From: Pseudomonas oryzihabitans
GTDB taxonomy: Bacteria; Pseudomonadota; Gammaproteobacteria; Pseudomonadales; Pseudomonadaceae
Direction: 5' to 3'
Assembly: GCF_014522265.1 (NCBI RefSeq)
Contig: NZ_CP017024.1
Span: 1,950,001-2,014,000, forward strand
DNA length: 64,000 nt
How positions within the stretch are numbered: position 1 is the first letter of the stretch; each line of letters starts with the position of its first letter. This document shows, piece after piece, positions 10,692-41,119 of the stretch. The notes under the pieces were generated by a model, which saw only the letters and a program-made list of their open reading frames with translations, did no database searches and was not told the DNA's origin. The translations under genes and the position numbers were made by a program.

Positions 10692-11089
10692 AGTTTTGGT
10701 TTGGGTGTTTTGGGGGGCTTTGTTACCTGGGTTGAGCGTTAGCGAAGCCCAAACGTCTCGGGTTCGGGCTTGAGGCTGCCTCAGCTGATTATCGCAGTTT
10801 GCTGATCGTTTTATTTTCGCCCCCCTCGGGCGAGTCACTTTTGCCAGTCGCGGCTGCGCGCCCCGGACAAAAGTAACCAAAAACGCTGTCCCCACGTTTC
10901 GGCCCTCCGCTGCGCTCCGGGTCCCCTCACTCCGGCGCCGCTCCGGGGGCACGGCACGAAGGGGCCTCCTGCCCCTCGCGCCTTGCTCGGCGTCCTGCCT
11001 CGCAACCCCCGCCACGACACCGGAACTCGGCCTCACTGACGGGGACGGGGCGCCAGCCTGAGAGTTCGGAGTTCAGGGGGGGGCGTAGC

Positions 11090-11115
11090 GTGGAAAACCG
11101 CGCAGCGTTTTCCAC
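11090..11115 (+). repeat. Hairpin, single dispersed copy (GTGGAAAA / TTTTCCAC)
   Basis: GTGGAAAA pairs with TTTTCCAC; an inner CGC/GCG stem closes a GCA loop. It is the same hairpin as in the tandem array at 21.4-22.1 kb and at 41027, but there the inner stem is GGC/GCC. The change is compensatory. Confidence 0.75.
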
Positions 11116-11136
11116 TGTTGGGCACCGACATCATCA

Positions 11137-11162
11137 GTGGACAAGGCTTCGCCCTTGTCCAC
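11137..11162 (+). repeat. Perfect 10 bp hairpin GTGGACAAGG / CCTTGTCCAC
   Basis: A 10 bp perfect stem closes the loop CTTCGC. It sits 21 bases after the GTGGAAAA hairpin and before the three-way-junction element, as part of the same repeat core. Confidence 0.7.
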
Positions 11163-11231
11163 GCTATGAGTCGCTTCCGTTTCTTCAACCAACACTTTCA
11201 GTCTGGCGAGTCGCCCCGTTCAGGAGGGCGA

Positions 11232-19028: not shown

Positions 19029-20845
19029 GTGATCGAGAATCTCCGCAACATCGCCATCATCGCGCACGTCGACCATGGCAAGACCACCCTCGTCGACAAG
19101 CTGCTGCGCCTGTCCGGCACCCTGGACCGCAAAGAAGCGGAAAACGAGCGGGTGATGGACAGCAACGACCAGGAAAAGGAACGTGGCATCACCATCCTGG
19201 CCAAGAACACCGCGCTGAAGTGGGGCGACTACAACATCAACATCGTCGACACCCCCGGCCACGCCGACTTCGGTGGCGAGGTGGAGCGCGTGATGTCCAT
19301 GGTCGACTCCGTGCTGCTGGTGGTCGACGCCCAGGACGGCCCCATGCCGCAGACCCGCTTCGTGACCCAGAAGGCCTTCAAGGCCGGCCTGCGTCCGATC
19401 GTGGTGGTCAACAAGATCGACCGTCCCGGCGCGCGTCCGGACTGGGTCATCGACCAGATCTTCGACCTGTTCGACAACCTCGGCGCCACCGATGAGCAGC
19501 TGGACTTCCCGATCGTCTACGCCAGCGCCCTGAACGGCATCGCCGGTCTGGACCACGAGAAGATGGACGACAACATGGATGCCCTGTTCCAGGCCATCGT
19601 CGACCACGTGCCGGCCCCCAGGTCGATCTGGAAGGTCCCTTCCAGATGCAGATCTCCCAGCTGGACTACAACAGCTTCCTCGGCGTGATCGGCATCGGCC
19701 GTATCGCCCGTGGCCGCATCAAGGCCAACACCCCGGTCGTCGCCATCAGCGATGACGGCAGCAAGCGTAACGGTCGTATCCTCAAGATCATGGGCCACTC
19801 CGGCCTGCAGCGCGTGGAAGTGGCCGAAGCCGAAGCCGGCGACATCGTCTGCGTCTCGGGCATGGACGAGCTGTTCATCTCCGACACCCTGTGCGATCCG
19901 CAGAACGTCGAAGCCCGTCCGCCGCTGACCGTCGACCAGCCCACCGTGAGCATGACCTTCCAGGTCAACGACTCGCCGTTCGCCGGTCGTGAAGGCAAGT
20001 TTGTCACCAGCCGCAACATCAAGGACCGGCTGGAGAAGGAACTGCTGCACAACGTGGCCCTGCGCGTCGAGCCGGGCGAGTCGGCCGAGAAATTCAAGGT
20101 CTCCGGCCGTGGCGAGCTGCACCTGTCGGTACTGATCGAGAACATGCGCCGCGAAGGCTTCGAGATGGCCGTGGGCCGTCCGGAAGTGGTGATCATCGAG
20201 AAGGACGGCGTGAAGCAGGAGCCCTACGAGAACGTCTCCATCGACATCGAAGAGCAGCACCAGGGCTCGGTGATGGAGCAGATGGGTCTGCGCAAGGGCG
20301 ATCTGACCAACATGATCCCCGATGGCAAGGGCCGTATCCGCCTGGAATACACCATCCCGGCGCGTGGCCTGATCGGCTTCCGTAACAACTTCCTGACCCT
20401 GACCTCGGGCAGCGGCATCCTGACCTCGACCTTCAGCCACTACGGTCCGATCAAGGCCGGCGAAGTGACCAACCGTCAGAACGGCGTGCTGGTGTCCATG
20501 GCCACCGGTACCGCCCTGACCTACTCGCTGGAAACCCTGCAGAGCCGCGGCAAGCTGTTCCTGGCGCCGGGCGACGAGATCTACGAAGGCCAGCTGTGCG
20601 GCATCAACAGCCGTGACAACGACCTGGTGCTCAACCCCACCAAGGGCAAGAAGCTGGACAACATGCGCGCCTCGGGCAAGGACGAAGTCATCGCCCTGGT
20701 GCCGCCGATCAAGTTCACCCTCGAGCAGGCGCTGGAATTCATCGCCGACGACGAGCTGGTGGAAGTGACGCCGAAGTCCATCCGTCTGCGCAAGAAGTAC
20801 CTGAACGAGAACGACCGCAAGCGGTTCGAGCGTTCCAAGGTCTGA
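19029..20845 (+). CDS. typA: Ribosome-associated GTPase TypA/BipA (frameshift at about 19617)
   Basis: Translational GTPase that binds ribosomes and aids 50S assembly at low temperature and under stress. About 605 residues after repair, against 607 in E. coli. The G domain has [30 protein letters not shown] and [15 protein letters not shown]; then come the beta-barrel domain, the EF-G-like domains and the BipA C-terminal domain ([20 protein letters not shown]-like region, RLRKKYL end). The start is a GTG at 19029. The frame breaks in the C run 19615-19619; one extra C gives [20 protein letters not shown]. Flanking sequence is fully conserved, so error is likelier than loss. Confidence 0.93.
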
Positions 20846-20991: not shown

Positions 20992-21381
20992 ATGCTCAAG
21001 ACCACCCTCGTCGCCACCTTCACCCTGACCGGTATCTTCGGTTTCGCCACGGCTCAGGCCGCCGGTTGCGGCACGCCGCGCAATGCCTTCGATACCGTCT
21101 ACTGCGCCAGCAACCTGTTCGCCCAGAGCGACAAGTCGCTGAACCAGACCTATGGCGAGCTGCGCAAGCAGCTGCCGGCCGATCAGCAGGCCGTGCTCAA
21201 GCAGCGCCAGCTGGCCTGGATCAAGCAGCGCGACAGCCAGTGCGCCCGCGAGGAGGCCGATGGCTACTTCGTCAATCTGGACTGCGCCGTCAGCCTGACC
21301 GACAGCCGCCTGGAGGTGCTCAAGGAACGCCTGCGCGAGTGCGCCAGCACCGGTTGCGAGGCGGGCAAGCTGGGGCAGTGA
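20992..21381 (+). CDS. LprI-family (DUF1311) exported cysteine-rich protein
   Basis: 129-residue exported protein with a signal peptide (about 1-22, cut after AQA) and six cysteines in the mature part. The DUF1311/LprI motif is visible (AQSDKSLNQTYGELRKQL...QRQLAWIKQRDSQCAREE). Members of this family have been linked to lysozyme inhibition (LprI in mycobacteria), but most are uncharacterised; the role here is inference. The ATG at 20992 follows AGGA. It has its own transcription unit after the typA terminator and is followed immediately by the tandem repeat array. Confidence 0.85.
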   Translation: MLKTTLVATFTLTGIFGFATAQAAGCGTPRNAFDTVYCASNLFAQSDKSLNQTYGELRKQLPADQQAVLKQRQLAWIKQRDSQCAREEADGYFVNLDCAVSLTDSRLEVLKERLRECASTGCEAGKLGQ

Positions 21382-21411: not shown

Positions 21412-22120
21412 CCCTCACCCCAGCCCTCTCCCAGAGGGAGAGGGGGTTATCCGAGCAGGTGCTCAGCGTCGTCGCCCGGAGAAAATCGTAGCGTGAAAAA
21501 CGGCGTTAGCCTTTTCCACTGGGGGTTCGCCGCCAGAGAGCCCTCACCCCAACCCTCTCCCCGGGGAGAGGGGGCTATTCGAACGGGTGCTCAGCATCAT
21601 TGCCCCGGAGAAAATCGTAGCGTGGAAAACGGCGCAGCCTTTTCCACTGGGGAGTCGCCGCCAGAGAGCCCTCACCCCAACCCTCTCCCCGGGGGAGAGG
21701 GGGCTATTCGAGCGGGCGCTCAGCATCATTGCCCCGGAGAAAATCGTAGCGTGGAAAACGGCGTTAGCCTTTTCCACTGGGGGTTCGCTGTCAGAGAGCC
21801 CTCACCCCAACCCTCTCCCCGGGGAGAGGGGGCTATCCGAGCAGGCGCTCAGCGTTATTGCCCCGGAGAAAACCGTAGCGTGGAAAACGGCGCAGCCTTT
21901 TCCACTGGGGTTCGCCGCCAGAGAGCCCTCACCCCAACCCTCTCCCCGGGGGAGAGGGGGCTATCCGAGCGGGCGCTCAGCGTCATTGCCCCGGAGAAAA
22001 TCGTAGCGTGGAAAACGGCGCAGCCTTTTCCACTGGGGATTCGCCGCCAGAGAGCCCTCAGCCCAACCCTCTCCCCGGGGGAGAGGGGGCTATTCGAACG
22101 GGTGCTCAGCGTCGTCGCCC
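21412..22120 (+). repeat. Tandem array: five and a half units of about 128 bp, two hairpins each
   Basis: Units begin (CCCTCACCCC or close) at 21412, 21541, 21669, 21799, 21926 and 22055, so the period is 127-130 bp. Each full unit carries hairpin A, a perfect inverted repeat of CCCTCTCCCC with GGGGAGAGGG, then a spacer (GAGCGGGCGCTCAGCGTCAT type), then hairpin B (GTGGAAAA / TTTTCCAC with inner GGC/GCC). The inner loop alternates between GTTA and GCA while the stem is kept. Unit 6 stops before hairpin B. Long open frames cross the array, but they only translate the repeat. Copies differ by a few per cent. The 210 bp between the array and estA hold another inverted repeat (22192-22217) and no gene. 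Confidence 0.92.
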
Positions 22121-22191
22121 CCACGAGCGCTGCCGCTGGTTAGCAGCAGACTCGACGGTCATGGCGGGCCGCCCTGGTCGAACTATCGACA

Positions 22192-22330: not shown

Positions 22331-24268
22331 ATGACATCTTTTCTCCGGCAACGCCTGCCGCTGGCCATCGCCCTGGCCACGGCGCTCGCGGCAACCGCCC
22401 AGGCGGCTCCCAATCCCTACAGTGGCTTCACCGTGTTCGGCGACAGCCTGCTCGATGCCGGGCAGTTTCCCGACACCGGGGTCAATGGTGCCAGCCTCAG
22501 ATTCACCAACCGTGTCGGGCCGGGCTACAGCCCGGCCAGCGGCGCGGTGACCGGACCGGTGTCCTCGATGCTGCTCGGCCAGCAACTGGGCTTCGATGTC
22601 CGTACCCTGGACGCCTCCACCTCGCTGATCAATCAGCGGATCGGCCTGAGCGATGGCGACAACTGGGCCACGGGCGGCTACACCACGGCGCAGATCCGCG
22701 ACTCCATCACCGCTCGCAACGGCTCGGTGGTGGCGGTGGGTGGCCTGACCCTGCGCAGCCGGGACGGCTACCTGCCCGGACTTGCCAGCCAGGGCCTGAG
22801 TCTGGATCCCAATACCCTGTTCTACATCAGCGGCGGGGGTAACGACTTCCTCCAGGGACTGGTCACCTCGCCGGCCACCGCGGCAGCCGCGGCCAATCGC
22901 CTGGGTGACGGCGTCGCTGCGCTGCAGCAGGCCGGCGCCCGCTACATGGTGGTCTGGCTGCTGCCCGACATCGGCCAGACCCCGGCCCTGGCCGGTTCGC
23001 CGCAACAGGCGGCCAGCTCGGCCCTGAGCCGGGTCTACAACCAGGCGCTGGTGGCGCGCCTAGCCGGCATCGACGCCCAGATCATCGGCCTCAACGTGCC
23101 CCAGCTGCTGGCCGAGGTGGTGGCCGAACCGGGACGCTATGGCCTGGCCAGCGGGCAGAATCTGACCGGCACCTGCTTCAGCGGCGACAGCTGCACCCGC
23201 AATGCCACCTATGGCCTGGGCGCGGCGGCGGCCGATCCCAGCCAGCTGCTGTTCAACGATCGCGTCCACCCGACCATCACCGGGCAGCGGCTGATCGCCG
23301 ACTACGCCTATTCGCTGCTGGCCGCACCCTGGGAGGTCACCCTGCTGCCGGAGATGGCCCAGTCCACCCTCAGGGCGCATCAGGACGGCCTGCACCAGCG
23401 CTGGCTGGGCGACTGGCATGCCTGGCAGCCGGTGGGGCGCTGGCAGGGCTATGTGGATACCAGCGCGCGGCGCCTGGACGTCGACGACCAGCGCAGCACT
23501 GCCGGCGGCGATGGCAACGGCTACAGCCTGGACCTGGGTGGCAGCTATCGACTCAGCGAGGAATGGCGCCTCGGTGTCGCCGCCGGGGTCGCGCGGCAAC
23601 ACCTGGAACCCGGTGCGGCCGATTCCGACTATCGCCTCAACAGCTATCTGCTCAGCGCCTTCGCCCAGTACCAGGGCGAGCGCCTCTGGGGCGATCTCAC
23701 CGCCACCGGCGGGCGGCTGGACTACGTCGACCTGAGCCGGCGCTTCGCGCTTGGCCCGACCACCCGCAGCGAGCAGGGCGATACCGACGGCGATCTGCGC
23801 GCCCTCTCGGCGCGCCTGGGGTACGACCTGGCAGCGGCCGGCAGTCCCTGGCACCTGAGTCCCTATCTCAGCGCCGACTATGCCCGTGTCCAGGTGGACG
23901 GCTACCGGGAGCGCGGCAACGACGCCACGGCGCTGGAATTCTACGACCAGTCGAGTACCTCGCGGCGACTGGGGCTGGGCCTGCAGGGCCGCTGGCAACT
24001 CGCACCGGCCACGGCGCTGTTCGCCGATCTGGGCCGTGAGCGGGAATTCGCCGACGGCACTCGCGATGTGACCATGCGCCTGAACAGCGTGCCGGGTCTG
24101 GACTACACCCTGGACGGCTACCAGCCCGACAGCGACCGCACCCGCCTGAGTCTGGGCGTGGTCCAGCGGCTGACGCCGGAGCTGACCCTGCGCGGCGGCT
24201 ACAGCTATGCCGGTGCGGGCGATACCCACCAGCAGGGCGTGGGCCTGGGCCTGTCGCTGGACTTCTAA
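22331..24268 (+). CDS. estA: Outer-membrane autotransporter esterase EstA (GDSL family)
   Basis: Surface-displayed esterase of the type that affects rhamnolipid production and motility in P. aeruginosa. 645 residues, against 646 for PA EstA. Parts: signal peptide (1-25, ends AQAA), GDSL/SGNH passenger (about 30-350) with nucleophile Ser39 in FTVFGDSLLD, block GGGNDFL, and Asp310/His313 in FNDRVHPTI, then a C-terminal autotransporter beta-barrel (about 380-645) ending in aromatic Phe (LGLSLDF), the outer-membrane insertion signal. The ATG at 22331 follows AAGGA. The gene stands alone, downstream of the hairpin array and convergent with the GGDEF-EAL gene. Confidence 0.95.
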   Translation: MTSFLRQRLPLAIALATALAATAQAAPNPYSGFTVFGDSLLDAGQFPDTGVNGASLRFTNRVGPGYSPASGAVTGPVSSMLLGQQLGFDVRTLDASTSLINQRIGLSDGDNWATGGYTTAQIRDSITARNGSVVAVGGLTLRSRDGYLPGLASQGLSLDPNTLFYISGGGNDFLQGLVTSPATAAAAANRLGDGVAALQQAGARYMVVWLLPDIGQTPALAGSPQQAASSALSRVYNQALVARLAGIDAQIIGLNVPQLLAEVVAEPGRYGLASGQNLTGTCFSGDSCTRNATYGLGAAAADPSQLLFNDRVHPTITGQRLIADYAYSLLAAPWEVTLLPEMAQSTLRAHQDGLHQRWLGDWHAWQPVGRWQGYVDTSARRLDVDDQRSTAGGDGNGYSLDLGGSYRLSEEWRLGVAAGVARQHLEPGAADSDYRLNSYLLSAFAQYQGERLWGDLTATGGRLDYVDLSRRFALGPTTRSEQGDTDGDLRALSARLGYDLAAAGSPWHLSPYLSADYARVQVDGYRERGNDATALEFYDQSSTSRRLGLGLQGRWQLAPATALFADLGREREFADGTRDVTMRLNSVPGLDYTLDGYQPDSDRTRLSLGVVQRLTPELTLRGGYSYAGAGDTHQQGVGLGLSLDF

Positions 24269-41000: not shown

Positions 41001-41022
41001 GCCGTACTACTTATTAGCGTAG

Positions 41023-41102
41023 TAGCGTGGAAAACGGCGCAGCCTTTTCCACTGGGACTTTGTCGCGAGGGACGCCCTCTCCCCAAGGGAGAGGGGGCTT
41101 GC
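41023..41102. repeat. Single copy of the array unit (hairpins B and A)
   Basis: Hairpin B (GTGGAAAA 41027-41034 with TTTTCCAC 41045-41052, inner GGC/GCC) is followed by hairpin A (CCCTCTCCCC with GGGAGAGGG, about 41075-41096). It is a solitary copy of the 128 bp unit found tandemly at 21.4-22.1 kb. It lies just after the nrdF stop and could act as a 3' end structure. Confidence 0.75.
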
Positions 41103-41119
41103 CGGAGCAGCGGGTTGGC

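What the first reader, a model, noticed from the sequence alone, without database searches (positions are those of the whole stretch)
21412..22120. Tandem array of two-hairpin 128 bp units between an LprI-like gene and estA
Five full units and one partial show a constant period, with every unit keeping hairpin A (CCCTCTCCCC/GGGGAGAGGG) and hairpin B (GTGGAAAA/TTTTCCAC). The hairpin B loop switches between GTTA and GCA while the stem is kept. Solitary units exist at 41023-41102 and, in part, at 11090-11115. This is more orderly than ordinary REP sequences and may be a nuclease-resistant RNA, a protein-binding array or a mobile non-coding element.
Basis: seen in the sequence. Interest (0 to 1): 0.75.

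Follow-up and report, generated by a model that had tools for sequence, protein, structure and literature searches.

The report
Tandem array of hybrid hairpin repeats
Between two genes of a Pseudomonas lies a real but non-coding row of repeats, each a hybrid of two already known kinds of bacterial hairpin DNA, and rows like it differ in length and spacing at the same gene junctions in related species.

Summary
The array is real: 710 bp (21412-22121), period 128/129, six A blocks and five B hairpins. It is not unique. The same ~108-nt element, (CC)GTAG-hairpin B, ~22-nt spacer, hairpin A with a third block, occurs at 35 scored loci of this Pseudomonas (oryzihabitans-group) genome, 13 of them tandem, arrays having their own periods and linkers. 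Hairpin B is a GTAG-type REP that elsewhere in this genome forms inverted REPINs. The unit is a chimera in which the TM stands where a REPIN's second arm would be. Of the 35 loci, 25 lie between convergent genes, none between divergent ones. At orthologous junctions related species differ in unit number and period, units being more alike within than between genomes: recurrent local amplification. The only RAYT found is flanked by another REP. Best mechanism: selfish or neutral intergenic repeats amplified by slippage or unequal recombination seeded by the TM (inferred). Tandem REP clusters are known; the REP-TM chimera is a new variant. No evidence was found for a dedicated RNA or protein-binding array.

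The parts
21412..22121 (.). whole tandem array, period 128/129 bp, 5.5 copies
   Evidence: TRF and repeat finder
21412..21444 (+). A block 1: CCCTCACCCC third strand + hairpin A (9-bp stem, AGA loop)
21541..21572 (+). A block 2
21669..21701 (+). A block 3
21799..21830 (+). A block 4
21926..21958 (+). A block 5
22055..22087 (+). A block 6 (last; third strand CCCTCAGCCC)
21488..21519 (+). GTAG + hairpin B 1 (GTTA loop, one stem mismatch)
21617..21647 (+). GTAG + hairpin B 2 (GCA loop)
21746..21777 (+). GTAG + hairpin B 3 (GTTA loop)
21875..21905 (+). GTAG + hairpin B 4 (GCA loop)
22003..22033 (+). GTAG + hairpin B 5 (GCA loop)
41022..41117 (+). solitary B-A unit without the third-strand block; the orthologous junction in P. 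oryzihabitans DE0602 carries three units with it
11085..11167 (.). inverted pair of B-type REPs (REPIN) with 21-nt spacer, not a partial array unit
20992..21381 (+). upstream gene, LprI family (PF07007)
22331..24268 (+). downstream gene, EstA/EstP-like GDSL esterase autotransporter
   Evidence: PF00657 + PF03797; NF041609 at 958.5 bits, under its cut-off of 1000

Best explanation
The array is a local tandem amplification of a dispersed, non-coding, chimeric repeat: a GTAG-tagged REP arm (hairpin B) joined, at the spacing of a REPIN, to a G/C-rich intrastrand-triplex motif (hairpin A plus third strand). The REP arm gives the element its sharp 5' end. The triplex motif is the likely seed of instability: in single-stranded DNA at a replication fork it folds and stalls synthesis, and the nascent strand slips or recombines with a neighbouring copy, so that element plus flanking DNA is duplicated, deleted and homogenised. 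The elements survive where they do least harm, downstream of genes and above all between convergent genes. Shown: anatomy, copy number, genus distribution, gene context, between-species differences in number and period, within-genome homogeneity. Inferred: triplex formation in vivo, fork stalling, slippage or unequal exchange, spread of the dispersed copies by a Y1 transposase now lost or not recognised, absence of a selected function.
For: REP arm: GTAG 98% and B stem 97% conserved over 56 units; conservation upstream stops at CC|GTAG (29 loci); the same B hairpin forms inverted pairs, 22 confirmed places, spacer 17-24 nt and exactly 21 in 14 of 22, while the gap from B to A is 20-25 nt in 52 of 58 units. 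Triplex arm: third strand 98.4% conserved against 59.8% for the spacer; 38 of 56 units keep 9 of 9 reverse-Hoogsteen triads, as 2.6% of 2000 shuffled third strands do; same three blocks as the E. coli motif list of PMC4666352. Amplification: 13 of 35 loci hold two or more units, with locus-specific spacing. Ten orthologous locus sets were compared; in 6 of the 6 with enough units, units are more alike within a genome (0.88-0.94) than between genomes (0.61-0.82), the 289-kb locus having spacings of about 158, 142, 139 and 229-293 in four genomes. At the window locus the five genomes with lprI upstream have 6A5B, 5A4B, 3A2B, 1A and 1A, units 91.3% identical within and 84.6% between genomes. TM as driver: tandem at 13 of 35 REP-TM loci and at 13 of 43 clusters of the motif without a composite hit, but at 0 of 14 REPIN loci without the motif (Fisher 0.0098 and 0.025). 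Context: 25 of 35 loci convergent, 0 divergent, against 9-14% convergent gaps in 400 kb of the same genome.
Against: Within REPIN loci alone the motif's effect is not significant (tandem 2 of 6 with it, 0 of 14 without, p = 0.079). One of the 14 is unconfirmed; with 13 the three p values are 0.010, 0.026 and 0.088. All these tests are post hoc. Pair covariation is weak: two pairs of B change on both sides, each in the three units of one array only (L003, L012), and 40 of 500 shuffles reach two such pairs; hairpin A shows none, so its structure rests on conservation, which copying also gives. No precise empty site was found; at the P. rhizoryzae array locus this genome holds other repeats instead. 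The three array-bearing species of the window locus do not form one clade in the estA tree, where some support is very low. No transcription, replication or strain-level data.
Confidence: 0.7

Rival explanations
1. RAYT-made arrays: a REP-associated Y1 transposase recognises GTAG-hairpin B, cuts beside it, and strand transfer or circular intermediates make both the dispersed copies and the tandem arrays.
For: B has the GTAG tag and a stem like published RAYT substrates, and the element's 5' end is sharp at GTAG. B-type REPINs exist in the same genome. TnpA_REP proteins cleave single-stranded REPs near the hairpin (passages of PMC8266576). One B-like REP (7 mismatches to the consensus) lies about 450 bp from a weak Y1 match in another genus (L088).
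Against: The only PF01797 match here is flanked by another REP, GTAGGAGCGGCC. I scanned the flanks of 50 of the Y1 matches listed: none has the full A pattern (L053 has a short part of it 1.4 kb away), and only L088 has a B-like hit. G007, G009 and G010 have 11, 18 and 56 composite hits and no PF01797 match. REPINs without the triplex motif are tandem at 0 of 14 loci.
Confidence: 0.15
2. Selected 3'-end element: the repeats act in RNA as transcription buffers or mRNA 3'-end stabilisers between convergent genes, and selection keeps or multiplies them there.
For: 25 of 35 loci convergent, none divergent (background). The authors of the Enterobacter sp. 638 genome presumed a role in termination for CCCTCTCCC..GGGAGAGGG repeats (passage of PMC2869309). 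REPs are known to lie downstream of genes (PMC3733652 section 15).
Against: The same placement follows if insertions near promoters are purged. At the 10 co-directional loci the unit has the genes' orientation in 3 and the opposite in 7. No T-run terminator at the array by simple scan. Numbers run from one A to six at one junction between species, and an orthologous junction can lack the array altogether.
Confidence: 0.13
3. Dedicated structured RNA or protein-binding array specific to this locus.
For: Hairpins conserved; folding z about -2.
Against: No Rfam match at gathering score; the same element at 35 loci with different linkers and spacing; only one A block upstream of estA in six of the nine genomes with the closer estA.
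Confidence: 0.03

Closest known systems
GTAG-tagged REPs, in particular long-stemmed families such as GTAG-24 (PMC3733652)
   Same: 5' GTAG, palindrome with a one-base bulge and short loop, intergenic, many copies, inverted dimers; tandem clusters with flanking DNA are described.
   Different: In the array unit the partner is not a second REP but a triplex motif. Likeness to GTAG-24 rests on its described 12-13-bp stem with bulge; the consensus figure was not seen.
Intrastrand triplex motif TM / TM-ECO (PMC4666352); the CCCTCTCCC..GGGAGAGGG repeats of Enterobacter sp. 638 (PMC2869309)
   Same: Three blocks CCCTCTCCC, GGGAGAGGG, GGGGTGAGGG on one strand (two of them quoted for Enterobacter); intergenic; linked by the authors of PMC4666352 to local instability.
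   Different: In the E. coli K-12 list (passages and section 18 read) copies are single or in inverted pairs; here the motif is fused to a REP and stands in head-to-tail arrays.
Tandem REPIN clusters of P. fluorescens SBW25 (PMC3116915, passages)
   Same: Head-to-tail copies including flanking DNA, up to over 700 bp.
   Different: Units there are symmetric REPINs or REPs; here one arm is the triplex motif, and no tandem REPIN without the motif was found among 14 loci.
BIMEs
   Same: Mosaic of palindromes with linkers, frequently in tandem (passage of PMC8266576).
   Different: A BIME joins a REP and an inverted REP; A carries no GTAG.

Membership tests
GTAG REP (hairpin B) | short palindrome preceded by an unpaired GTAG | tested here: met
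   GTAG 98%, stem 97% conserved over 56 units; 98.4% of cells of helix 1 paired
GTAG REP (hairpin B) | many copies, intergenic | tested here: met
   70 of the 71 composite hits of 60 bits or more form 35 loci, all in gaps between called genes, with overlaps of at most 20 bp at two; B also in inverted pairs at 20 pattern loci, one of them (1901360) not confirmed
GTAG REP (hairpin B) | cognate RAYT flanked by the same REP (common, not obligatory) | tested here: inconclusive
   one PF01797 gene here, flanked by a different REP; 50 Y1 loci scanned, one doubtful B-like hit
REPIN | two REPs in inverted orientation with spacer | tested here: not met
   the array unit has B and then A, not B and inverted B; only the spacing agrees
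BIME | REP and inverted REP with linker, often tandem | tested here: not met
   tandem yes, second inverted REP no
Intrastrand triplex motif (hairpin A with third block) | three consecutive blocks giving G*G-C, A*A-T, T*A-T triads | tested here: met
   9 of 9 triads in 38 of 56 units, 8 or more in 48 of 56; same blocks as the list read in PMC4666352
Intrastrand triplex motif (hairpin A with third block) | folds as a triplex (CD, NMR, footprint) | not testable with these tools
   done by others for the E. coli motif, according to the abstract of PMC4666352
Structured RNA family (Rfam) | match to a covariance model at gathering score | tested here: not met
   no match in the window
Protein-coding repeat | period a multiple of three kept within and between arrays | tested here: not met
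   128/129 here; elsewhere for example 121/122, 124/135, 130/131, 135/137, 138/148, 158/159, 247-249

The most novel reading that the evidence does not exclude
A chimeric mobile element in which an intrastrand-triplex motif has taken the place of one REPIN arm, so that a single unit carries both a dispersal end (GTAG REP) and a local amplification seed (triplex). It would create species-specific minisatellites again and again at the same, mostly convergent, gene junctions: a natural system in which triplex-driven tandem amplification can be followed over evolutionary time.
Probability: 0.3. Interest if true: 0.65.

Novelty: new variant of a known kind. Interest (0 to 1): 0.45.

Why it matters
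How REP clusters and other intergenic minisatellites arise is, to my knowledge, unsettled. Here one genus offers a built-in comparison: the same REP with and without the triplex motif, the motif with and without the REP, and orthologous junctions at different stages of expansion. If the triplex motif is the driver, the proposal that such motifs cause instability becomes directly testable with natural alleles. Repeat numbers are also candidate strain-typing markers, and the spurious open frames across the arrays (for example 21493-22143) are an annotation trap.

Tried and rejected
Coding repeat: a 216-aa open frame crosses the array, but periods are not multiples of three; rejected. RNA gene: no Rfam match. 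Terminator or promoter: none by simple scan. TIR of the TIRYT transposases: GGGGTGAG fits the degenerate GGGGWSAS motif of PMC3733652 (section 16), but no scanned Y1 gene had the full A pattern beside it, and at the one locus where that degenerate motif stood on both sides of a Y1 gene (L063) the sequence was GGGGACAG; dropped. Replication-strand bias: 18 against 17 of 35 loci, with a dif-like site at 3.98 Mb and an origin only guessed near 1.9 Mb from GC skew; no bias seen. Phage or plasmid carriage: no phage record matched; 11 plasmid records matched at most 40% of the unit, all in the A part and its tail. Two-unit higher-order pattern in this array (GTTA/GCA alternation): suggestive only, not tested.

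Rows dropped and limits: alignment A1 holds 56 of the 57 units found (L003:1953-2063 left out by me; L006, the same place as part of L013, was skipped in that script). One search used 70 of the 71 hits with 60 bits or more (3311420, 60.1 bits, left out); some of its spacings (105, 114, 115, 125, 301) involve incomplete or unscored units. The search scored 150 candidates and that at most 67 per genome, so copy numbers are lower bounds. One search used the 100 A places that one search listed, of 206, and its clusters 'without composite' may still have other B sequence nearby (209357 has a REPIN). The spacer counts include a place held twice (L024 lies in L181); I use the list instead. The ten locus sets were picked by me. 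Some of the named relatives seem to be the same genomes as G handles (equal contig lengths), so searches are not fully independent. Gene calls come from a home-made codon-usage caller trained on the window. One search read minus-strand loci in the wrong orientation; corrected.

Full report
Observation. The array stands as described: 21412-22121, period 128/129, TRF score 1157. It lies between an LprI-family gene (20992-21381, PF07007) and an EstA/EstP-like GDSL autotransporter esterase (22331-24268). Six A blocks alternate with five B hairpins; the array begins and ends with A.

The element. A DNA search of the window's own genome (one 5.05-Mb contig) gave 76 matches. Fetching most of these places showed one repeated anatomy: GTAG, hairpin B, a variable spacer, CCCTCACCCC, hairpin A, a decaying tail. 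A covariance model built from 56 units gave 60 hits of 80 bits or more and 71 of 60 bits or more, with 150 candidates scored. Seventy of these form 35 loci; 13 loci hold two or more and 11 three or more. Spacing between successive hits is characteristic of the locus (for example 121/122, 130/131, 138, 158/159, 247-249; all values 105 to 301, some from incomplete units), because the linker is local sequence. Conservation begins abruptly at CC|GTAG and fades about 25 nt after hairpin A (29 loci).

What B is. B has the marks of a GTAG-type REP. In the same genome it also forms inverted pairs with GTAG outside: 23 different places in the pattern search, 22 of them confirmed, at 20 loci; the spacer is 17-24 nt and exactly 21 in 14 of 22. 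[quoted passage not shown]

What A is. A typical A has three blocks, not two. On the complementary strand they read CCCTCTCCC-loop-GGGAGAGGG-NN-GGGGTGAGGG, the triplex motif TM studied in PMC4666352 (abstract, sections 15 and 18, and passages read). The third block is 98.4% conserved, the stems 97.0%, the B-A spacer 59.8%; 38 of 56 units allow 9 of 9 triads and 48 of 56 at least 8. The genome has 206 such motifs at up to two mismatches against 4 for the reversed pattern. The motif alone is widespread: plasmids of Azospirillum, Variovorax and Rhizobium matched only that part of the unit. The solitary unit at 41022 and the last units of the arrays in L004 and L007 have lost one of the two C-rich blocks, as a slippage deletion would leave them.

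The chimera. The gap from the end of B to A is 20-25 nt in 52 of 58 units, mode 22, close to the REPIN spacer. The unit therefore looks like a REPIN whose second arm is the triplex motif. That A replaced an arm, rather than that a REP inserted beside A, is inference. At one junction a relative (L133) has B-A and a further inverted B where this genome (L215) has only the inverted pair, but the intervening DNA differs too much to reconstruct the event.

Distribution. The exact B..A pattern hits 63 stretches of the genome collection, all titled Pseudomonas: oryzihabitans, rhizoryzae, unnamed strains and one MAG. With the model, 9 of 12 other genomes of the genus have hits (11-66 each, at most 67 scored), and 2 of 44 genomes outside it, with weaker scores. 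The A motif alone (up to one mismatch) is present in those nine at 33-249 copies, absent from G001, G004 and G012, at 238 and 189 copies in one other genus, and at 0-59 in the remaining genomes.

Copy number at the window locus. estA is found in 12 of 13 genomes of the genus, not in G006. Five have lprI within 1.5 kb upstream: this genome 6A/5B, G008 5A/4B, G002 3A/2B, and a single A in G007 and G009, there next to a different REP. G003, G005, G010 and G011 have no lprI match there and one A each (that of G003 read by eye, the pattern missed it; G010 has a further partial one), so their A need not be the same insertion. G001, G004 and G012, with distant estA, have none. Units are 91.3% identical within and 84.6% between genomes. 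The estA tree does not group the three array-bearing species, with supports from 0.097 to 1.0 at the nodes concerned, so loss or repeated gain must be assumed.

Copy number elsewhere. Of 63 stretches from relatives, 45 align over at least 1 kb at 80% or more with a fetched stretch of this genome that carries the element or its parts. Ten orthologous sets were compared; in 6 of the 6 with enough units, units are more alike within a genome (0.88-0.94) than between genomes (0.61-0.82). Spacings often differ: at the 289-kb locus about 158, 142, 139 and 229-293 in four genomes; at two loci they agree within a base or two. At another junction P. rhizoryzae has five units and this genome none, holding other REPs instead. 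The pattern is recurrent local amplification and homogenisation at old sites.

Which half drives amplification. REPIN loci without the motif are tandem in 0 of 14 cases; REP-triplex loci in 13 of 35; clusters of the motif without a composite hit in 13 of 43 (Fisher p = 0.0098 and 0.025; 0.010 and 0.026 without one unconfirmed REPIN). Within REPIN loci alone the contrast is not significant (2 of 6 against 0 of 14, p = 0.079). These tests are post hoc.

Structure. Pairing is kept in 97.0% of cells, and the covariation score exceeds all 500 shuffles, but two-sided changes occur at only two pairs of B, each confined to one array, and 40 of 500 shuffles reach that number. Hairpin A has none.

Context. 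Of 35 loci, 25 are convergent, 10 co-directional, none divergent. In 20 spread 20-kb stretches of the same genome, 12 of 133 gaps of at least 100 bp are convergent and 35 divergent; of all 279 gaps, 40 and 45. REPs show a like preference in other genomes (section 15 of PMC3733652).

Transposase. PF01797 gives one match in this genome, a 151-aa protein scoring 144 bits (cut-off 80) against NF047646, REP-associated tyrosine transposase. Its flanks carry GTAGGAGCGGCC repeats, as do those of one PF01797 gene each in five other genomes of the genus; one in G011 has GTAGGTTGGGCT repeats near it. None of 50 scanned Y1 loci has the full A pattern; one in another genus has a distant B-like REP. Three element-bearing genomes have no PF01797 match, two of them in about 40 contigs.

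Mechanism and verdict. Shown: a chimeric REP-triplex element, dispersed, retained at many shared loci, amplified in place differently in different species, kept out of divergent gaps. Inferred: the triplex motif seeds slippage or unequal exchange. PMC4666352 links the motif with rearranged and deleted loci in E. coli and discusses slippage; expansion is my extension. I saw no mention of the chimera in the listings and passages from the searches, which cover open-access papers only. I call it a new variant of a known kind.

Noticed in passing
window 19029-20845: The typA/bipA gene is split over two overlapping frames (one matching TypA 1-198, the other 207-603): a frameshift, either a sequencing error or a broken copy.
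   Followed up: partly
L009 1307-1992 (G000:C1 about 2172.6-2173.3 kb): The genome's only PF01797 gene, a RAYT by NF047646, is enclosed by inverted pairs of a different REP, GTAGGAGCGGCC; similar arrangements stand in G002, G003, G005, G006 and G008.
   Followed up: yes
L075 (G011): A Y1 transposase gene with GTAGGTTGGGCT repeats within the fetched stretch, suggesting that this other REP has its own RAYT in the genus.
   Followed up: partly
G000:C1 685521-685886, 987260-987398, 2363797-2364019: Arrays of the triplex motif without a composite hit of 60 bits (115 bp x4, 58-60 bp x3, 101 bp x3).
   Followed up: partly
window 41022-41117; last units in L004 and L007: Units that have lost one of the two C-rich blocks of the triplex motif, as a slippage deletion between its CCCTC repeats would leave them.
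   Followed up: partly
G001, G004, G012: Three genomes placed in the same genus had no hit for the element or the triplex motif and have only about 60% estA nucleotide identity to the others: a deep split in the genus.
   Followed up: no
G025:C29 102006-102614: A genome of another genus has five copies of a CCCTCTCCCC variant of the A motif at an exact 147-bp spacing, an independent array.
   Followed up: no
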